Origin: Bacilli bacterium
GTDB taxonomy: Bacteria > Bacillota_I > Bacilli_A > RFN20 > CAG-826
Length of the DNA stretch: 36,509 bases
Direction: 5' to 3'
NCBI GenBank assembly: GCA_017540455.1
Contig: JAFYAZ010000035.1
Span: 1-36,509, forward strand
The notes beneath the pieces are model-generated. The model made no database searches. It saw only the letters and a program-made list of their open reading frames with translations, and was not told the origin of the DNA. Of this stretch, positions 18,016 to 33,035 are shown one piece after another (positions within the stretch are counted from its first letter, which is position 1; each line of letters opens with the position of its first letter). A program made the position numbers and the translations under genes.

Positions 18016-18870
18016 GGCGTCGTGCTTAAGTAAATCTTCGTAAAGATCGGTGCGGCGATCGCGGTAAACTCCCCATCCGAAGCGCTCTTTGGCGATTTCG
18101 GCGAGGTCGAATTCCGCGTAGCGAATTCCTTCTTCCTCACGGTTCATCTCTTCAACGAAGTCACCGTGCTGATCGGCGATGAAGGAGGAACCATAGAACT
18201 TCATGGAGGATTTTCCCATGGACTCAACACCGACTCTGTTGGCCGCCATGACTGGCATGATGTTTGCGGCAGCGTGTCCCTTCATGACGTTCTGCCAGTG
18301 ACTCTTGGAATCTTTTGGAAGAACTGGTTCGGAACCGATCGCTGTTGGGAAAAGAAGGATCTCGGCGCCTTTGAGGGCAAGGATTCTCGCGGTCTCTGGG
18401 AACCACTGGTCCCAGCAGATGCCAACGCCGATATTTCCGGCTTTTGTCTTGAAGACTTTGAATCCGGTGTCGCCTGGGGTGAAGTAGAACTTCTCCTCAT
18501 AGCATTCCCCGGTTGGGATATGGCTCTTGCGGTAGATGTCGACGATTGAGCCATCCTTGTCGATCATGGCAAGGGAGTTGAAATAGCAGTTTCCAGATTT
18601 CTCGAAGAAAGAGATTGGAAGAACGATCTTGTATTCTTTGGCCATCTCTTGGAAGTGCTTCAAGGTCTTGGAATCCTTGGCCTCTTCCGCTTTGGCAAAG
18701 AAGTCATAATTCTCGATTTGGCAGAAGTAATAGCCCTCAAATAATTCAGGGAGCAAAAGCAAATCCACGCCGTTTTTGCTGGCGGTTTTTATAAATTCAT
18801 CGGCTTTTTCGATGCATTTCTCATAGTTGTCTGGCATTGAGAATTGGGTAATGGCAACTTTGATTTTCAT
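18007..18870 (-). CDS. aguB: N-carbamoylputrescine amidase
   Basis: This 287-residue nitrilase-superfamily enzyme hydrolyses N-carbamoylputrescine to putrescine, CO2 and ammonia. The Glu-Lys-Cys triad is E42 (LLPELFEG), K115 (YRKSHIPTGECYEEKFYF) and C152 (GICWDQWFPETAR). CYEEKFYFTPGDTGF is characteristic of AguB within the superfamily. The ATG at 18870 overlaps the stop of the decarboxylase-deiminase gene (ATGA) and has GGAGG seven bases upstream; a longer reading from 18909 has no such support. It uses the product of the upstream deiminase domain, completing the arginine-to-putrescine route. Confidence 0.95.
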   Translation of the reverse strand: MKIKVAITQFSMPDNYEKCIEKADEFIKTASKNGVDLLLLPELFEGYYFCQIENYDFFAKAEEAKDSKTLKHFQEMAKEYKIVLPISFFEKSGNCYFNSLAMIDKDGSIVDIYRKSHIPTGECYEEKFYFTPGDTGFKVFKTKAGNIGVGICWDQWFPETARILALKGAEILLFPTAIGSEPVLPKDSKSHWQNVMKGHAAANIMPVMAANRVGVESMGKSSMKFYGSSFIADQHGDFVEEMNREEEGIRYAEFDLAEIAKERFGWGVYRDRRTDLYEDLLKHDASK

Positions 18871-21488
18871 TTGTTCTCCTCCTCGGTTGGAACTTGCATG
18901 GTGATGCAATGGATGTTTCCTCCGCCATAAAGGATCTCGAGGGTGTTGACCTGATGGATCTCTTTATCCGGATAAACCTTCTGCATGGTCTTGAGGGCGG
19001 CTTCGTCTTCTTTGACTCCGAAGGCTGGAAGGATGATGAAGTCCTTGCCCTGGTAGTAGTTGACATAGGAAGCTGCTAAGCGACGTCCCGCCACTCTCTT
19101 ATCGAGGGTGTTGTTATTGTTAACGAGGGACTTGGCTTCTTCTTTGCCTAGGTAGAGCGGTGAAGGAAGCTTCATCTTGTGGATGATGAATTCTCTTCCC
19201 TTCGCGTCGGTCTGTTTCTTGAGAGCGCGATACGCTTTCTGGCAATAGTCGTATTGTGGGTCATTCTTGTCGGTGGTCCATGCGAGCATGACTTCGCCCG
19301 GTCTTACGAAAGAGACCATGTTGTCGATATGCTCGTTGGTTTCGTCTTCATAGATTCCATGAGGAATCCAAACGATCTTCTCAACACCGATATATTCACG
19401 AAGGACTTCTTCGATTTCGGTCTTGGTAAGACATGGGTTGCGTCCTGGGGAGAGGAGACAGGCTTCTGTGGTGATAAGCGTTCCTTCTCCATCGACGGCA
19501 ATAGATCCGCCTTCGAGGACGAATTTTGGATGGACATAGGACATAAGCCCCATCTTCTTTGAGATAACAGACTTGAGTCTGTCGTCATCTTTGTAGTTCT
19601 TATAGAGGCCGTCATAGTCTCCGCCCCAAGCGTTGAAGCGGAAATCAACGGTTCTGAGATTCTTGCCGTTGGTGATGAACAAAGGCATGTTGTCACGGGC
19701 CCAAGCATCGTTATAGCGGACTGAGATCGTCTCAACGTTAGGAATCCTCTCGTAGATTGGAGCAAGGGCTTTGTGGAAGTTTGGATGGATGCCCACCACA
19801 ACTTTCTCGTGCTTCGCGATAGCGGTGATGACGTCTTTGTAGGCAACCTGAGCAGGTCTCGCTTTCTTTCTCCAAGTATCAAGACGATATGGGAGAAGGA
19901 CAAGGGTCTCTTTATGTTTCTCGCCTTCAAATGGGACGTGATATCCATCATTGAGAGGCGTGGTCTTTTTGTTGCGGTGATAATCGCTCAGTTTCTTCTC
20001 GTAGACGGAGAAGCGACGCCAATTATCGGTGTCGATGACTTGGAAGCCGTCTTTAAAAGACGAGAGTAGGCGAATGCCTTCTTTCTTGTGTTCTTGGAAG
20101 AACTTAACTCTCTTGATGAGGTCTTTGGTCCATACCTCGCCAGGAACGATAAGCGGGATTCCCGGAGGGTACATCATGATTTGCTCTTTGGAGACGGTTC
20201 CGTCTAATTCGTCGAGAGGCATAACCTTTCCCGGAGCGTGGAAGGCGACACGAGGCCTTGTGAGCATGAACGGGAAAGAACTATCGAAGTGATGGTCTTC
20301 GTAGACGATGTTTTTGTGATAGTGCTTGGCAGAGATATCCTTGAGGGCCTCAACCAAAGCATCGACGTGCTTCTTCTTCGTTCCGATGGCGAAGACGCAC
20401 ATGATCTCGTAAGTCTCAGCGAGCTCAACCTGAACTTTGTATTCGTCGATGAGGAGACGGTATAAATCAAATCCGTCGATATCGAGCTTATCGATTGCGA
20501 TAACGAATTTGCTGGAGTCATAGTCGTAGGCTCCGTTTGATTTGAAATAGTCCTTGTCTTTGACTTCGAAGCCTTTGATTTGGTTGATCTTCTTTCTCGC
20601 ATATTCGACGAGCTTATAGGTGTCCGCCATAGCGGTCTGGCCTTTCTTGGAAGCCATGAAAGCGCGAGCCCCGTCTAAAGACGCCATAAGCAAAGTCGAT
20701 GGAGAAGTCGTGTTCAAAATGTTGAGAGAGATCTGAACCTCTTCCTTTCTGAACATGTATTCGTTCAAGAGAAGAACGGAGGACTGGGTCAATGAGCCAG
20801 CGGTCTTGTGGAAGGAGACGGCAGACATATCCGCTCCTGCATCCATAGCAGTCATTGGCTGACCCTCGATTTGGAAATAGAAGTGAGCGCCATGAGCTTC
20901 ATCAACAAGGACGGCCATATGGTGTTCGTGAGCGTACTCAACGAGTTCTTTGAGGTCACCGACCGCACCAAAGTAGGTTGGGTTGATGACAAAGATGGCT
21001 TTAGCGGATGTATTTCTGTTGATGGCCTTCTTCCACTCTTCGAGTGTTGGCTGATTCGCGATCTCAAGATCGTTATCGATCTGAGGCATGACATAAACTG
21101 GAACGGCGCCGGAAATCGTCAAAGCGTTGATGACGGATTTGTGGACGTTACGAGGAAGGATGATCTTCTCCCCTGCTTTGACCGCAGTCATGATCATCGC
21201 GATGATGCCGCTAGAAGTTCCGTTGATCAAAAAGAAGGACTCGTCAGCGTGGCAGGCTTCCGCCATAAGCTGTTCCGCTTCCATGATTACGCCATTAGGT
21301 TTGGCGAGGTTATCTAAACCAACTGGGGCATTGACGTCACAAAGGAAAGCTTCGTGACCTAAAACCCTTGTCGCGGCATTGTCGACGTTGCCCATGTGAT
21401 GCCCTGGGACATCAAAAGGAGAGACATCTTTCTTGATGTAATTCTCTAGAGCCGTGATAAACGGGGTATGTTTCTGACCCAATTTCAT
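18867..21488 (-). CDS. Bifunctional arginine decarboxylase-agmatine deiminase fusion
   Basis: This is an 873-residue fusion. Residues 1 to about 490 form a fold-I PLP decarboxylase of the SpeA/Orn-Lys-Arg group: FDVPGHHMG near the N-terminus, D196 in VDEAHGAHF, the PLP lysine K228 in VSFHKTAGSLTQSS, and YPPGIPLIVPGE (440-451). Residues of about 516-873 form a complete agmatine deiminase: NDAWARDN (593-600), E659 in LEGGS, H720 and D722 in ETNEHIDN, and catalytic C861 in GGGNIHCIT. It should convert arginine to agmatine and then to N-carbamoylputrescine, passing it to AguB encoded next. The start MKLGQKHTPF matches family N-termini; upstream in-frame codons overlap the glycosyltransferase and are rejected. 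No Shine-Dalgarno is visible, and a -10-like TATTAT ends 9 bases before the ATG. Arginine as substrate is inferred from the fused deiminase. Confidence 0.93.
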   Translation of the reverse strand: MKLGQKHTPFITALENYIKKDVSPFDVPGHHMGNVDNAATRVLGHEAFLCDVNAPVGLDNLAKPNGVIMEAEQLMAEACHADESFFLINGTSSGIIAMIMTAVKAGEKIILPRNVHKSVINALTISGAVPVYVMPQIDNDLEIANQPTLEEWKKAINRNTSAKAIFVINPTYFGAVGDLKELVEYAHEHHMAVLVDEAHGAHFYFQIEGQPMTAMDAGADMSAVSFHKTAGSLTQSSVLLLNEYMFRKEEVQISLNILNTTSPSTLLMASLDGARAFMASKKGQTAMADTYKLVEYARKKINQIKGFEVKDKDYFKSNGAYDYDSSKFVIAIDKLDIDGFDLYRLLIDEYKVQVELAETYEIMCVFAIGTKKKHVDALVEALKDISAKHYHKNIVYEDHHFDSSFPFMLTRPRVAFHAPGKVMPLDELDGTVSKEQIMMYPPGIPLIVPGEVWTKDLIKRVKFFQEHKKEGIRLLSSFKDGFQVIDTDNWRRFSVYEKKLSDYHRNKKTTPLNDGYHVPFEGEKHKETLVLLPYRLDTWRKKARPAQVAYKDVITAIAKHEKVVVGIHPNFHKALAPIYERIPNVETISVRYNDAWARDNMPLFITNGKNLRTVDFRFNAWGGDYDGLYKNYKDDDRLKSVISKKMGLMSYVHPKFVLEGGSIAVDGEGTLITTEACLLSPGRNPCLTKTEIEEVLREYIGVEKIVWIPHGIYEDETNEHIDNMVSFVRPGEVMLAWTTDKNDPQYDYCQKAYRALKKQTDAKGREFIIHKMKLPSPLYLGKEEAKSLVNNNNTLDKRVAGRRLAASYVNYYQGKDFIILPAFGVKEDEAALKTMQKVYPDKEIHQVNTLEILYGGGNIHCITMQVPTEEENK

Positions 21489-21507
21489 TGCGCATATATA
21501 ATACGCA
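21489..21507 (-). promoter_or_regulatory. Promoter/near-palindrome abutting the fusion gene start
   Basis: The minus strand reads TGCGTATTATATATGCGCA directly before the ATG. It contains a -10-like TATTAT (21498-21503) and is a near-palindrome with TGCG arms. Transcription would begin about 2-3 bases before the start codon, giving a leaderless mRNA. The -35 is poor. It could also be an operator. Confidence 0.4.
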
Positions 21508-21550
21508 TTCGCTACCCCATGTGAAATTATTTTTTGACCCCTAGAGGGAT

Positions 21551-21582
21551 AAAAAATAAACCGCACGGATTTCGTGCGGTTT
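21551..21582 (-). terminator. Intrinsic terminator after the glycosyltransferase
   Basis: A 10-bp stem AAACCGCACG with CGTGCGGTTT around a 5-nt loop is followed on the minus strand by TTTATTTTTT. It separates the glycosyltransferase gene from the polyamine operon. The plus side also has a T-run. Confidence 0.88.
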
Positions 21583-21609
21583 TTGTCAGCGATTTTTAGA
21601 TTTTCAAGC

Positions 21610-22641
21610 TTAGTTGAACTTGACGATTTTGTGGCCAAGATGGAAACCGGTTCTGGCAAGAAGGGTTCCAATGCCAAGAGGAAGGTTGATGAACCAAATA
21701 AGTGGGTGGCGTTTGACCTTCTTGTATTGGCGCTTGTTGTTGGTCTTGCAGTGTCTCCAGAAATCCTTGAGGGCTTCTCTTGATTCCTTGGTTCCAACAT
21801 ATTTGGCCCAAAGGACTGAGAGGAGCATATTCATGATCAAGTGATGGAAGACGGCTTTGTAGGTCGCTTTGTCTTTGATCGAATAAATGTCGATGGCATC
21901 GAAGATGAGCTTTCCGTCGATAAGGAAGTCTTTGTACTTCTTAACGAGGTTAGAGGTCTGCATGGACTGGCCATCTCTGCCAGTGAGGTACTGATAGACG
22001 CTCACAGGGACATAACGGATCTCTTTGACAAACGCCATTGGGGCGTAGATGAAGTAGTTGTCTTCATAGGAGACGTGTCCTGGGCAATGGACTCCGCTTT
22101 CTCTAAGGGTAGAGGTCCTATACATGGTGGTATGTAAGGTAAGGTTGCGGTCGTAGCGGAAAGGCTTGATGCAGGACCATGGTCCGCCTTTGGCGGCATC
22201 ATAGTCTTTGCCTTTGAAAAGGTAGTTGAAGTTGATGGTGGCGTCTTTGTTGTCTCTACCATGCCAGTAGGTGTAGTCGGTGAAGTAGAGGTCGGCTTTG
22301 CAGTTTTGCTCTTTGACGTCTTTGAGAAGAGCGGCAAATCCATCGTGATCCACCCAATCGTCGCTATCGAGGACGCGGAAGTAGACACCGGTGGCAAGCT
22401 CTAAGCCATGGTTGATGCCTTCGCCATGTCCGCCGTTTGGCTGGTGGACGGCTTTAATGAATGGGTGTTCGGCTGCGTACTTGTCTGCAATCTCACCCGT
22501 TTTGTCTTTGGAACCATCATCAATGATGATGACTTCGACGTCTTCCCCAAATGGGATGAGGGAATCGACGGCGTAGTGCAAGAATTCCTCGCTGTTATAA
22601 GCAGGGATGCACACTGTGATTAATTTCTGTTTTGTATCCAT
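21610..22641 (-). CDS. Family 2 glycosyltransferase
   Basis: This 343-residue GT-A enzyme uses a nucleotide sugar to extend a cell-surface glycan. The N-terminal domain has ITVCIPAYNSEEFL, VIIIDDGSKDKTGEIADKYA, NGGHGEGINHGLELATG and the metal-binding DSDD (92-95). The C-terminal part (about 230-343) is helical with hydrophobic stretches such as LLSVLWAKYVG and a basic tail that may lie on the membrane. The ATG at 22641 (MDTKQK) was chosen over an upstream in-frame codon because the conserved domain starts right after it. There is no clear Shine-Dalgarno; a -10 TATAAT and a long inverted repeat lie just upstream. Acceptor and donor are unknown. Confidence 0.9.
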   Translation of the reverse strand: MDTKQKLITVCIPAYNSEEFLHYAVDSLIPFGEDVEVIIIDDGSKDKTGEIADKYAAEHPFIKAVHQPNGGHGEGINHGLELATGVYFRVLDSDDWVDHDGFAALLKDVKEQNCKADLYFTDYTYWHGRDNKDATINFNYLFKGKDYDAAKGGPWSCIKPFRYDRNLTLHTTMYRTSTLRESGVHCPGHVSYEDNYFIYAPMAFVKEIRYVPVSVYQYLTGRDGQSMQTSNLVKKYKDFLIDGKLIFDAIDIYSIKDKATYKAVFHHLIMNMLLSVLWAKYVGTKESREALKDFWRHCKTNNKRQYKKVKRHPLIWFINLPLGIGTLLARTGFHLGHKIVKFN

Positions 22642-27689: not shown

Positions 27690-28592
27690 ATGAAATTCTC
27701 ATCTTTCATGAAATTTGCTGGTTTCGGAATCAGCACAATTCTCTTTCGAAGGAAGAAGCCTATTTTAGGAACGGTCATCGTCACCGATAAGTGCAACCTC
27801 CACTGCAAACACTGTTCCGTCAATAACATCACCGCGGTCATCCACCCATATGAACAGATCAAAGGCGAGATGAAGCAGCTCTATGACATGGGCGTGCGCA
27901 TCCTCTTTTTCTGTGGAGGCGAGACCTTCATGTGGAAGGACGGAGACAAGACCCTTAGAGACCTCGTCATCGAGGCGAAAAAGATGGGCTTTCTCATCGT
28001 CAACGTGGTCACGAACGGTACCTGGCCAATCGATTTGCCAGAGGCGGACTTAATTTTATTAAGTCTTGATGGCGACAAAGTCCACCACAACATCATCAGA
28101 GGCGAAACTTACGACACCATCTTCGAGAACATCTCCAAAGCCACTTCTGACAACATCTGTTTCTATATGGCCGTCAATCAAATCAACAAAGATTGCATCC
28201 GTGACGTCTGCGAGAAAGCCCGCGACACCAAGAACGTCAGAGCGGTCTCTTTCAACTTCCATACCCCATACCCAGATACCAAAGAACTCAAACTCACCAA
28301 AGAAGATAAAGCCAAATGCTGCGAGACCATAAAGCAGATGATGAAGGAAGGCTGCCCCGTCTTTAACCTTAAGAGCGCATTCCCATATATCATCGAGAAC
28401 AAATTCCCAACTCCGTGCTACCAATGCGTCGTCATGGAGAATGGAAAGCTTTCCGTCTGCGGGCGTTGCATCGATGTCCCAGGCCTTTGTGATGAATGTG
28501 GCTACTTCTTCGTCGCCGAATATACCCTTCTCTTCAGGGGCAACTTGAAGATCATCTTCGAGATGCTTAAGACTTACCTGAAATACATCTAA
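27690..28592 (+). CDS. Radical SAM protein with three C-terminal CxxC pairs
   Basis: This 300-residue protein has the radical-SAM 4Fe-4S motif C35-x3-C39-x2-C42 (CNLHCKHC) and the SAM-contact motif GGE at 76-78. The C-terminal part has C243xxC246, C257xxC260 and C267xxC270, which could bind one or more extra iron-sulfur clusters as in SPASM-type enzymes, though the spacing is not classical. The N-terminus MKFSSFMKFAGFGISTILF and the C-terminal LLFRGNLKIIFEMLKTYL are hydrophobic or amphipathic and may touch the membrane. One base separates its stop from the next radical-SAM gene, so the two probably work together. I cannot name the substrate. Confidence 0.85.
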   Translation: MKFSSFMKFAGFGISTILFRRKKPILGTVIVTDKCNLHCKHCSVNNITAVIHPYEQIKGEMKQLYDMGVRILFFCGGETFMWKDGDKTLRDLVIEAKKMGFLIVNVVTNGTWPIDLPEADLILLSLDGDKVHHNIIRGETYDTIFENISKATSDNICFYMAVNQINKDCIRDVCEKARDTKNVRAVSFNFHTPYPDTKELKLTKEDKAKCCETIKQMMKEGCPVFNLKSAFPYIIENKFPTPCYQCVVMENGKLSVCGRCIDVPGLCDECGYFFVAEYTLLFRGNLKIIFEMLKTYLKYI

Positions 28593-28593
28593 A

Positions 28594-29847
28594 ATGAGTT
28601 TCCTTACATCACTTGCAAGATCCTGGCTCACAAGGTCACTCAAACCATTCACTTTCAAGAGTGATTACGACCAGCTTCTCCCATATGAAAACCTAGACAA
28701 TCTAGGTCTTTATGTTCACCTTCCTTTTTGCAAAAACATCTGCAATTTCTGCCCGTATTGCAAAAAACTCTACTCAGAAGAGGAGAGTAACAGGTATATC
28801 GATGCCCTCATAAAAGAGATCCATTTGGTAGGTTCTCAAAGCAAAGAAAAGAAGAAGGTCACGAGCCTCTATTTCGGAGGCGGAACTCCTGCTTTGTCCG
28901 CGCCTAGAATCCACGAGATCATTGAGGCCATAAACGAGCACTTCATCATCACCGAAGGAATCGGTTTGGAGCTTCATCCGGAAAACGTTAACAAAGAGAC
29001 CCTCCAGACACTTAAAGACGCTGGGGTCACCAAGATCTCAATCGGCATTCAGTCCTTCCGTTCCAAATATCAGTCCATATTGGGAAGAAAGACCGTCGAT
29101 ACCGAAGCCATGAAAGAGGCTTTAAAGGCCGTTCCTTTTGAAACGGTGTCGATGGACTTCATCTTCGCTTTGCCTTCACAGACATATGAAGACCTTGAAG
29201 CGGATGTCGATGAAGCTTTCGAGCTTGGCGCTAACCACGTAGCCATTTATCCGTTCATCGACTTCACCTTCACCTCTAGCAAAGTCAAAGCCCTTCCAAA
29301 GAAAGAGAAAAGAGAGCTTCTTGATGCCATAACAAAACACTGCCAAGAGAAAGGCTATCCTCGCAGCACCATTTGGACCTTCTCAAGCAAGCCTGAGGCC
29401 AAATACTCGTCAATGACGAGAGAGACCTTCTTAGGCTTCGGTTGTTCTGCTACCACCCTTCTCAAAGACCAGTTCAAGATCAACACGTTCGATGTTGATT
29501 CCTACATCAAGAGAATCGAAGAAGGGAAACTCCCAACTTCGTTGACCATCAGATTCAAGAAGAGACAAAGAATGGTCTATTGGCTCTTCTGGACCGCTTA
29601 TAGCACAAGCGTGGATTCCAAAGACTTTGAGAAGTTCTTCGGTGTATCCCTTAAGAAGAAGTATGGGTTTGAGCTATGGCTCGCTAAGAAGATAGGCTAC
29701 ATCACTGAGAAAGATGGTGTTTACACCATGACCCTCAAGGGGGCCTTCTACTACCACTACTTCGAGAACTTCTATACTCTCTCATATATCGACAAGATGT
29801 GGGGAATCATGAGGAAAGAACCTTTCCCAAAACAAATCAAACTTTAA
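28594..29847 (+). CDS. HemN/HemW-like radical SAM protein
   Basis: This 417-residue member of the coproporphyrinogen-oxidase-like radical SAM group has YVHLPFCKNICNFCPYCK, giving cysteines 46, 50, 53 and 56. The first three fit the cluster motif CxxxCxxC; the fourth is an added CxxC spacing, while HemN has CxC there and HemW usually none. FGGGTP (95-100) and the IQSFRSKYQSILGR segment are typical, and a winged-helix HemN C-terminal domain spans about 315-400. There are no heme-biosynthesis genes nearby. Relatives include HemW, radical-SAM methylases and anaerobic heme-opening enzymes, and I cannot choose between them. It has no Shine-Dalgarno and likely relies on reinitiation after the preceding stop. 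Confidence 0.83.
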   Translation: MSFLTSLARSWLTRSLKPFTFKSDYDQLLPYENLDNLGLYVHLPFCKNICNFCPYCKKLYSEEESNRYIDALIKEIHLVGSQSKEKKKVTSLYFGGGTPALSAPRIHEIIEAINEHFIITEGIGLELHPENVNKETLQTLKDAGVTKISIGIQSFRSKYQSILGRKTVDTEAMKEALKAVPFETVSMDFIFALPSQTYEDLEADVDEAFELGANHVAIYPFIDFTFTSSKVKALPKKEKRELLDAITKHCQEKGYPRSTIWTFSSKPEAKYSSMTRETFLGFGCSATTLLKDQFKINTFDVDSYIKRIEEGKLPTSLTIRFKKRQRMVYWLFWTAYSTSVDSKDFEKFFGVSLKKKYGFELWLAKKIGYITEKDGVYTMTLKGAFYYHYFENFYTLSYIDKMWGIMRKEPFPKQIKL

Positions 29848-29940: not shown

Positions 29941-30348
29941 CTAGTTGATTGAGATGTTGTGAACCAACTCTTTCTTCTCTTCTTCCTTAGGGAAGACGAG
30001 GGAGAGAACACCGTTTTCGAATTTAGCGTTGATGTCCTTTTCGTTGGTCAAACCAACATAGTAAGTCCTAGAAGCAGAACCATAGGTTCTCTCGTGGCAA
30101 ACATATTTGCCTTTGGACTTTTCATCCCTCTTGTCTTCGCGTTTGGCGGAGATGGTTAAGTATCCATCTTTGAGGGTGACGTTGATGTCTTCTTTCTTAA
30201 CGCCAGGAAGCTCTACATCCATCATGTAATGGGTTTCGTCTTCTTTGACATCCGTCTTCATGGAGATGGCGTGATTTTCTCTTCTGCTAACTGGAGCGAA
30301 GAAATCGTAGAATGGATCAAATCCGTAGTTGACTAAATCAAATGTCAT
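29941..30348 (-). CDS. Hsp20/alpha-crystallin small heat-shock protein
   Basis: This 135-residue ATP-independent holdase binds unfolding proteins in the cytosol. The alpha-crystallin domain spans about 25-125: VELPGVKKEDINVTL, then LTISAKRED and the GVLSLVFPK signature at 113-121. The C-terminal ISI (132-134) is the IxI motif that docks into a neighbouring subunit for oligomer assembly. AAGGAGGT precedes the ATG by seven bases. Two CIRCE operators and a sigma-A-type promoter lie upstream, so HrcA repression relieved by heat is predicted. CIRCE control of a small heat-shock gene is less usual than of groES or dnaK. Confidence 0.95.
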   Translation of the reverse strand: MTFDLVNYGFDPFYDFFAPVSRRENHAISMKTDVKEDETHYMMDVELPGVKKEDINVTLKDGYLTISAKREDKRDEKSKGKYVCHERTYGSASRTYYVGLTNEKDINAKFENGVLSLVFPKEEEKKELVHNISIN

Positions 30349-31464: not shown

Positions 31465-32973
31465 TTATTTCAGGCCGTTTCTAATCTCTTTGAGCTTGGT
31501 TTGAAGCTCTTTTAATCCGAGGTTAAGCTCATTGGCTTCACCTGGTTTAAGATGGCGAACCCTTTCGATCTGGGCCTCGATGGCTTTGGCCGCCAAGACC
31601 TTCGAATAGTTAGGGTTGTTGATGTTGGCGTTAAGAATCAGATCCTGCCTTTGGGTCTCGGCAAAGCCGGAACTGTGGCTGGCTGGTTTCTTTGGCGCCT
31701 CTTTCTTAGGGGCAGGCTTCTTAGCTGGCGCCGGCTTTTTGGTTTCAGCCGGTTTCGCTTTAGGAGCAGCCTTAGGGGCTGGTTTTGCTTTTGGCTCCGC
31801 TTTTGGTTTTGGAACCGCGACAGGTTTCGGTTTCAAAGAAGCGTAGAAGTCGTTGTTCTTCTTTTCGAAGACAATGGTGGCTCCCTTGATTTTGTATTCT
31901 TTGAGCATGTCGTGCTTAAGCTCGGACACCTCTTTGTCGACCGCTTTAAGGTCTTTGGTGGTGACATCATATTCACCATGGACCATGGCGACATATGCAA
32001 CGTCTGGGTCTCTGAAGATCCAACCGTTATATTGGCCAAGCTTCTGAAGCGCGAAGCTTGGGGTCCTTCCGATTCCGTAGAAGATCTTCGGGGTTTCGGC
32101 CTTTGGTTTTTCAGGAGCCTTTGGAGCAGGAGCGACTGGCTTGGCTTTTGGGGCTGGGGCTAAACGCTTCTTCTCCTCAAGAAGCTTCTCTTCTGGGTAA
32201 CGGAGTTTGAGATTTGCTTTCTCGGCAGGTTTCATAGCCTTGAGAAGAGCAAGCTGTTTGTCGATATCCTCAATCTTCCTTGGGGTTGGGTAATTAGGAT
32301 TGCTGAGATTCGCGGAAAGTGCGGAATCTGCTAAAACCACAGGGGATTTGTCAGTGATTTTTGGTTTTTCAGGGGCTTTTTGCTGGGCTTCCTGTTTGGT
32401 TTTGATTGGGGTTTTGTTGTTCGAAATTGGTCGAACGTTGTTTCTTGCTGGGGCGCGTTCTTGCGGCTTCTCACCGTAGTTCACCTCTAAATCACCACTT
32501 CTGCTGATGCGGTAGACGTTGATGATTCTTCCCTTCTGGGATTCGAGGCTATTGAGACCACGGATGTCGTTTGTAAGTTTCTTGTCTTGGGTGATGATGA
32601 GAATCTTCTCGGCGATTCTCAGATCGGTGACCTTGGCAAAGATTGCTCTATCCGCAAAACCATCTTTGTGGGTTGGTTTTGTGATCTCAATGGTTTTGCC
32701 ATGGCGTTTATTGTCTTGCAGGATTTTTATGGCGAGTTTCGCTTCTACTAACTTATCGCCTTCCTTGCTCTTCGAATGCTTTTTGAGTTCTTCCATGCAT
32801 TCGCCAAGAACAATAACTTTCAAACCGTCTTTCCAATATTCACGGGATTTGACTAAGCAATCCATGAACAAAGGGAACGAGTCTTCCATCAAGGAACAAG
32901 TATCCATGAACACTTTGTCGAAATTATTCAAAAATTTCGCAAGGTTCGAGGACTTGATTTCCTCGCTGTACAT
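31465..32973 (-). CDS. PIN-domain protein with duplicated NPNY repeat and Ala/Pro/Lys-rich linkers
   Basis: This is a 502-residue protein. Residues of about 18-160 look like a PIN nuclease domain: D24 in KVFMDTCSLM, E61/E62, D108 in FADRAIFAKV, and D130 and D136 in ITQDKKLTNDI, which could make the acidic metal site. Two related segments follow, at about 216-271 and 444-501, each with AN(L/I)(S/N)NPNY and then LKAMKP or RHLKPGE and a helix. Between them lie low-complexity Ala/Pro/Lys linkers (about 272-295 and 380-432) and a compact domain of unknown type (about 296-378). No signal peptide or membrane segment. AAGGAGG precedes the ATG. An RNase role is inferred from the PIN fold only; the repeats are unfamiliar. 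Confidence 0.75.
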   Translation of the reverse strand: MYSEEIKSSNLAKFLNNFDKVFMDTCSLMEDSFPLFMDCLVKSREYWKDGLKVIVLGECMEELKKHSKSKEGDKLVEAKLAIKILQDNKRHGKTIEITKPTHKDGFADRAIFAKVTDLRIAEKILIITQDKKLTNDIRGLNSLESQKGRIINVYRISRSGDLEVNYGEKPQERAPARNNVRPISNNKTPIKTKQEAQQKAPEKPKITDKSPVVLADSALSANLSNPNYPTPRKIEDIDKQLALLKAMKPAEKANLKLRYPEEKLLEEKKRLAPAPKAKPVAPAPKAPEKPKAETPKIFYGIGRTPSFALQKLGQYNGWIFRDPDVAYVAMVHGEYDVTTKDLKAVDKEVSELKHDMLKEYKIKGATIVFEKKNNDFYASLKPKPVAVPKPKAEPKAKPAPKAAPKAKPAETKKPAPAKKPAPKKEAPKKPASHSSGFAETQRQDLILNANINNPNYSKVLAAKAIEAQIERVRHLKPGEANELNLGLKELQTKLKEIRNGLK

Positions 32974-33035
32974 TAAAAGTACCTCCTTATGAGTTAATTC
33001 TACTATATTTAGAACCTATTGGTTCCTAGAGTTTT

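What the first reader, a model, noticed from the sequence alone, without database searches (positions are those of the whole stretch)
31465..32973. PIN-domain protein with a duplicated NPNY repeat around an unrecognised central domain
After a PIN-like domain with the expected acidic residues, two segments of about 55 residues are clearly related: ANLSNPNYPTPRKIEDIDKQ and ANINNPNYSKVLAAKAIEAQ begin them, each leading to a helix with LK(A)MKP/LKPGE. They are separated by two Ala/Pro/Lys-rich flexible linkers and a compact domain of about 80 residues. This beads-on-a-string layout suggests a scaffold that presents a nuclease to a partner, possibly RNA, the ribosome or the envelope. I do not know the repeat.
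Basis: partly seen in the sequence, partly recalled or inferred. Interest (0 to 1): 0.6.

Follow-up and report, generated by a model that had tools for sequence, protein, structure and literature searches.

The report
PIN nuclease with hairpin in its gene
Two related groups of uncultured, mostly rumen, bacteria carry a chromosomal RNA-cutting enzyme (PIN type) mounted on a flexible, positively charged scaffold of previously undescribed modules, and the start of its gene hides a conserved RNA hairpin that suggests, but does not yet show, that the enzyme controls its own messenger RNA.

Summary
ORF 31465-32973(-) encodes 502 aa: PIN domain, linker, NPNY module 1, linker, compact alpha/beta domain, Lys/Pro/Ala linker, NPNY module 2. 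The N-terminus is a PIN fold (Foldseek; PIN_4 above Pfam's cut-off in three orthologs) with D24, E62, D108 and D130 invariant in 53 sequences. The modules are homologous (HHalign 99.3%). Neither they nor the central domain match Pfam or the PDB. The gene is in 36 of 37 genomes of its genus and 18 genomes of a sister genus, found nowhere else sampled with this architecture. All complete members are basic (pI 9.2-9.8). The closest outside PIN domains sit on kinases beside VWA and PP2C genes (TerY-P-like).

New: the first 84 nt of the CDS form a conserved hairpin over the catalytic DTCS codons. Pairing exceeds a synonymous-codon null (z 8.6 outside the window's kin), covaries (both-side changes 20 versus 7.3+/-2.0), is recovered without the window's kin (17 of 17 predicted pairs), and adds 10 bits or more in half of held-out sister-genus sequences. 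Best reading: a housekeeping PIN endoribonuclease tethered to RNA or ribosomes, perhaps autoregulated through this hairpin. Catalysis, targets and autoregulation are untested.

The parts
31465..32973 (-). CDS of the PIN-NPNY protein, 502 aa, pI 9.7, net charge +34
   Evidence: orthologs; purifying selection on all folded domains
32476..32973 (-). PIN domain (aa 1-166), putative metal-dependent RNase; D24 (32902-32904), E62 (32788-32790), D108 (32650-32652), D130 (32584-32586)
   Evidence: PIN_4 in 10 of 26 members, best 1.5e-5, over Pfam cut-off in three genomes at this gene; Foldseek 1o4w E 4.2e-4, 3ix7, SMG6; four acids invariant 53/53
32890..32965 (-). RNA hairpin embedded in the CDS (CDS nt 9-84), over the codons of the DTCS active-site motif
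32981..32988 (-). Strong Shine-Dalgarno-like sequence AAGGAGGU, just upstream of the start codon and hairpin
   Evidence: read in the sequence printed
32347..32475 (-). Flexible basic linker 1 (aa 167-209)
   Evidence: pLDDT below 50 at 172-208; net +6
32158..32346 (-). NPNY module 1 (aa 210-272), helical; absent by profile in L045, L046, L129 and L130, degenerate in L029 and L043
32089..32157 (-). Linker 2 (aa 273-295), Ala/Pro/Lys
   Evidence: 83% K/P/A; pLDDT below 50 at 275-291
31831..32088 (-). Central alpha/beta domain (aa 296-381) with invariant H332-G333 (VHGP motif)
   Evidence: A5/A6; AF2 pLDDT 93.5, pTM 0.84; no PDB or viral fold match with E <= 0.001
31669..31830 (-). Linker 3 (aa 382-435), 81% K/P/A, net +13; 26-344 aa long in relatives
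31468..31668 (-). NPNY module 2 (aa 436-502), found in all complete members tested except L130

Best explanation
A chromosomal, conserved (housekeeping-like) PIN endoribonuclease. SHOWN by computation: intact PIN active site; conserved modular basic architecture; a conserved, covarying hairpin in its own 5' coding RNA. INFERRED: the PIN domain cuts RNA with metal ions held by D24/E62/D108/D130; the NPNY modules and central domain, on long basic linkers, dock it on RNA, the ribosome or an RNA-decay partner, raising local substrate concentration; the CDS hairpin, starting at +9 behind a strong Shine-Dalgarno sequence, is a cis-regulatory element, most simply a cleavage or binding site by which the enzyme lowers its own synthesis (logic as in RNase III or Regnase-1 autoregulation, cited from general knowledge).
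For: PIN fold and active site. Conserved chromosomal gene: 36 of 37 genus genomes, 18 genomes of a sister genus; no relative confirmed in viral contigs, no PIN match in phages, only the PIN domain on plasmids. Constant basic charge: all 52 members measured have pI 9.2-9.8. Nucleic-acid-type module swap: FtsK_gamma-like domain in L130 and L129. Hairpin: MFE against synonymous-codon randomisation mean z -1.29 at CDS nt 1-96 versus +0.30, -0.22, -0.42, -0.10 in the next windows and -0.01 for 104 other genes; pairs formed 441 versus 358+/-9.7 in g1 without the window's kin, third-third codon-position pairs 126 versus 72.3+/-6.2, g23 z 3.6-3.9; covariation 0 of 500 shuffles, best at slide 0; same helices predicted without the window's kin; structure model beats sequence-only model by at least 10 bits in 9 of 18 held-out g23 loci; only one confident copy per genome, in this ORF.
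Against: No catalysis, RNA binding or autoregulation has been tested. RNAalifold over all 50 sequences finds no usable consensus and the hairpin differs or is not predicted in the QF clade, L026/L027/L033 and part of g23. Elevated codon conservation at CDS starts has other causes (initiation, recombination). No conserved operon partner. RNase Y and RNase J are present in genera with and without the gene, so it does not obviously replace a missing enzyme.
Confidence: 0.42

Rival explanations
1. The hairpin is real but is only a translational damper or the site of another factor; the PIN enzyme acts solely in trans on other RNAs.
For: The structure starts at +9, within the ribosome's initiation footprint, behind a strong Shine-Dalgarno sequence; it is confined to this gene; nothing links the protein to the hairpin directly.
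Against: A simple damper would not be expected to need a particular set of base pairs kept over two genera; still fully compatible with the data.
Confidence: 0.3
2. A domesticated conflict or stress effector: the PIN domain came from PIN-kinase/VWA/PP2C (TerY-P-like) systems and still acts as a stress-triggered RNase (growth arrest), now with its own scaffold.
For: The closest outside PIN domains (Lysinibacillus plasmid 34%, Fusobacterium 34%) are fused to a protein kinase and a treble clef beside VWA and PP2C genes; Hsp20 or ClpC-like genes lie nearby in about half of the loci.
Against: No antitoxin or triad partner beside it here; fixed in the genus, single copy, not mobile.
Confidence: 0.15
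3. A protein-protein scaffold whose PIN domain presents a nuclease to a membrane or chaperone partner; the basic linkers bind protein, not RNA.
For: Small 4-TM genes and Hsp20 follow the gene, co-directional, in several loci of both genera; the central domain gives weak roadblock/longin-type fold matches (TM-score about 0.4).
Against: Neighbours vary widely; fold matches are not significant; the protein is soluble by hydropathy.
Confidence: 0.13

Closest known systems
PIN_4 (PF13638) PIN domains
   Same: Fold, four acidic residues, Pfam score over the cut-off in three orthologs
   Different: D-T-C-S motif, and a C-terminal scaffold not matched by any library searched
PIN-kinase-treble-clef proteins in TerY-P-like (VWA, PP2C, kinase) loci of Lysinibacillus capsici and Fusobacterium vincentii
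   Same: Closest outside sequence relatives of the PIN domain, about 34% identity, same LN..S..G tail; the TerY-P triad is described in PMC11090510
   Different: No kinase, zinc domain, VWA or PP2C here; none of those proteins has NPNY modules
VapC toxins
   Same: PIN RNase fold
   Different: No antitoxin gene, 500 aa rather than about 130, fixed in the genus, single copy
Rae1/YacP (NYN domain, PF05991)
   Same: Works-like analogy only: a ribosome-associated PIN-like RNase of Firmicutes (own knowledge)
   Different: Family not found in any of the 18 genomes tested; no match for the window protein
RNases that autoregulate through a hairpin in their own mRNA (RNase III rnc leader, RNase E 5'UTR, Regnase-1; own knowledge)
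   Same: Nuclease gene with a conserved hairpin in its own transcript
   Different: Here the hairpin lies inside the coding sequence; cleavage not shown

Membership tests
PIN domain superfamily (PIN_4-like) | PIN alpha/beta fold | tested here: met
   Foldseek of the AF2 model: 1o4w E 4.2e-4 prob 1.00, 3ix7, SMG6
PIN domain superfamily (PIN_4-like) | Conserved acidic metal-binding quartet | tested here: met
   D24, E62, D108, D130 in 53 of 53
PIN domain superfamily (PIN_4-like) | Profile score above the curated cut-off | tested here: met
   Met in G004, G010 and G006 at this gene; the window member itself gives no hit
PIN domain superfamily (PIN_4-like) | Metal-dependent RNase activity | not testable with these tools
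   needs biochemistry
TerY-P-like PIN-kinase | PIN fused to a kinase, next to VWA and PP2C genes | tested here: not met
   No such domains or neighbours
VapBC toxin-antitoxin | Small antitoxin gene adjacent, patchy distribution | tested here: not met
NYN_YacP (Rae1) | PF05991 match | tested here: not met
   No match for the window protein; family not found in 18 genomes
FtsK_gamma (for the swapped module in L130/L129) | PF09397 match over the cut-off | tested here: inconclusive
   L130 E 0.0048, 17 bits against a cut-off of 30.6; per-genome E 2.7e-4 and 0.024
Self-regulating RNase mRNA | Conserved structured element in the enzyme's own transcript | tested here: met
Self-regulating RNase mRNA | Element cut or bound by the enzyme itself | not testable with these tools
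   needs biochemistry

The most novel reading that the evidence does not exclude
A lineage-specific PIN endoribonuclease with undescribed accessory modules recognises and cuts a hairpin encoded within its own catalytic-site codons, so that one stretch of RNA serves both as the active-site code and as the enzyme's regulatory substrate.
Probability: 0.25. Interest if true: 0.82.

Novelty: new variant of a known kind. Interest (0 to 1): 0.6.

Why it matters
The nuclease core is known; its accessory modules and lineage-wide conservation are not. A covarying hairpin inside a protein-coding start, pairing across codon third positions and apparently coupling amino-acid changes (N10/F22, S10/L22, A10/V22), is unusual in bacteria and gives a direct test of autoregulation for an otherwise orphan RNase of uncultured rumen bacteria.

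Tried and rejected
Overlapping antisense gene (ORF 32519-32992 +) as the cause of codon conservation: stop-free length varies from about 34 to 152 codons between relatives, not conserved. Simple codon gradient: part of the low divergence between L001 and L008 over codons 1-240 looks like recombination, and the corrected per-codon excess is modest beyond codon 30; the hairpin test was therefore done against synonymous randomisation. RNAalifold on all 50 sequences together: no usable consensus. Rfam on the window: nothing. Replacement of a missing RNase: RNase Y and RNase J present in all 18 genomes tested, YacP found in none. Viral or plasmid origin: no full-length relative. NCBIfam, PHROGs and PADLOC: no meaningful match; the ClfB hit is low-complexity sequence. 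Weak Jag_N, DUF4404 and L29 matches to the modules: not significant. Hairpin elsewhere in the genomes: no second confident copy. Literature: searches gave no description of this family; the PIN classification paper is not held.

Full report
OBSERVATION. The ORF 31465-32973(-) is real: 502 aa, intact, in 36 of 37 genomes of the genus including its own (the exception, G027, is 79% complete) and in 18 genomes of a second genus of the family. In an even sample of 395 genomes of the class only these two genera have it; one PIN-only relative appears in another family of the order (G079). Named records are uncultured Bacilli, Bacillales and Erysipelotrichaceae assemblies; where a source is given it is ruminant forestomach. 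All folded domains are under purifying selection, while the linkers drift mainly in composition and length.

ARCHITECTURE. Alignments give PIN (1-166), linker, NPNY module 1, linker, central domain, basic linker of 26-344 aa, NPNY module 2. The two modules are homologous: shuffles z 10.6, HHalign 99.3% and E 2.4e-20. Module 2 is found in every complete member except L130; module 1 is missing or degenerate in several. In g23, L130 has neither module and L129 lacks module 1; both carry an FtsK_gamma-like winged helix. No module profile matches Pfam or the PDB convincingly, and the modules were not found in other proteins of 41 genomes. The central domain folds confidently (pLDDT 93.5) with invariant H332-G333, and has no significant structural match in PDB or BFVD; AlphaFold DB could not be searched, so a new fold is possible but unproven.

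PIN DOMAIN. The single window sequence hits nothing in Pfam, but 10 of 26 relatives hit PIN_4, three genomes pass the curated cut-off at this gene, and the model matches PIN structures (1o4w, 3ix7, SMG6). D24, E62, D108 and D130 are invariant in 53 sequences. The nearest PIN domains found outside the lineage are N-terminal parts of kinase/treble-clef proteins in Lysinibacillus and Fusobacterium, followed by VWA and PP2C genes, that is, TerY-P-like triads as described in PMC11090510. So the PIN subfamily is used elsewhere in stress or defence signalling, but this gene is chromosomal, single-copy and without such partners.

CONTEXT. There is no fixed operon. Hsp20 follows within a few genes in about a third of the loci, in both genera; a ClpC-like gene lies a few genes upstream in ten g1 loci; small 4-TM genes are direct downstream neighbours in a subset. 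These are weak hints of a stress-related neighbourhood.

THE HAIRPIN. While measuring selection, synonymous divergence proved low at the 5' end of the gene. An antisense gene was excluded; recombination explains part for one pair; neighbouring control genes mostly lack the effect. Folding showed a long hairpin from CDS nt 9 to 84 in window, L008, L013 and L016, with similar hairpins in many others. Tests: (a) MFE against synonymous-codon randomisation, 49 sequences: mean z -1.29 at nt 1-96, about 0 in the next four windows and -0.01+/-1.06 over 104 other genes of the same loci. (b) Number of the window's pairs formed: in 23 g1 sequences without the window's close kin 441 versus 358.1+/-9.7; for pairs joining two third codon positions 126 versus 72.3+/-6.2; in g23 z 3.9 and 3.6; none of 400 randomisations reached the observed values. 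Slid registers of -1 and +1 are also enriched against that null (arm composition), so the register-specific evidence is covariation. (c) Covariation: both-side changes 84 versus 45.1+/-7.1 on 49 distinct rows and 20 versus 7.3+/-2.0 on the 17-sequence core set, where 88.9% of cells pair against at most 55% when slid; no shuffle of 500 reached either covariation score. These shuffles do not remove relatedness; the slid controls and the synonymous null address that in part. Pair 30-63 occurs as CG, GC, UA, UG, AU and GU. (d) RNAalifold on ten g1 sequences without the window's kin predicts 17 pairs, all 17 identical to the window's. (e) A covariance model trained on g1 scores held-out g23 loci up to 18 bits above a sequence-only model, at least 10 bits in 9 of 18; the gain is near zero or negative in a few. 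(f) The only confident hit per genome is this gene. The element is weak or different in the QF clade, L026/L027/L033 and part of g23, so it may have been remodelled or lost there.

MECHANISM. Shown by computation: a PIN fold with a complete active site, a conserved basic modular scaffold, and a conserved RNA element in cis. Inferred: RNase activity, RNA/ribosome tethering, and autoregulation. I commit to a scaffolded housekeeping PIN endoribonuclease with cis-regulation through its CDS hairpin; whether the enzyme itself acts on the hairpin is the open, directly testable point.

NOVELTY. As an enzyme core it is a known kind; as an architecture, and for the embedded hairpin, it is a new variant.

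Noticed in passing
linker 3 of L014, L025, L026, L027, L028, L034, L115, L118, L120, L122, L123, L126, L127, L128: Short conserved motif of the type VPxGATLIVGVP...IERKxRR inside the disordered linker in 14 of 53 sequences (shuffled linkers nearly never match); absent from the window's clade. Looks like a partner-binding short linear motif.
   Followed up: partly
L129 and L130 (genus g23): FtsK_gamma-like winged helix takes the place of one or both NPNY modules.
   Followed up: partly
L141:2973-3881 (Fusobacterium vincentii): HTH protein with a degenerate PIN-like C-terminal half directly upstream of the PIN-kinase/VWA/PP2C genes; acidic motif positions partly lost.
   Followed up: partly
L142:4944-5699 (Butyrivibrio proteoclasticus plasmid pCY186): Stand-alone PIN relative (29% identity) with a C-terminal glycine-rich hydrophobic tail.
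   Followed up: no
window 18867-21800 (-): 977-aa ORF joining an Orn/Lys/Arg decarboxylase to a Porphyromonas-type peptidyl-arginine deiminase domain (agmatine-deiminase-like), possibly two steps of polyamine synthesis in one chain.
   Followed up: no
window 32253-32973 against L008: First about 240 codons nearly identical, then a sharp drop in codon identity: a likely recombination breakpoint inside the gene.
   Followed up: partly
window 29941-30348 (-), and L049, L052, L056, L060, L113, L114, L116, L118, L122, L124, L125: Hsp20 gene recurrently downstream of the PIN gene in both genera.
   Followed up: partly
L022, L024, L030, L031, L032: Clade whose PIN protein begins QFTEE/EFTEE without the usual MY start, so its start codon lies elsewhere (possibly an N-terminal extension); the window-type CDS hairpin is not predicted there.
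   Followed up: no
window 27690-28592 and 28594-29847 (+): Two adjacent radical SAM genes one base apart.
   Followed up: no
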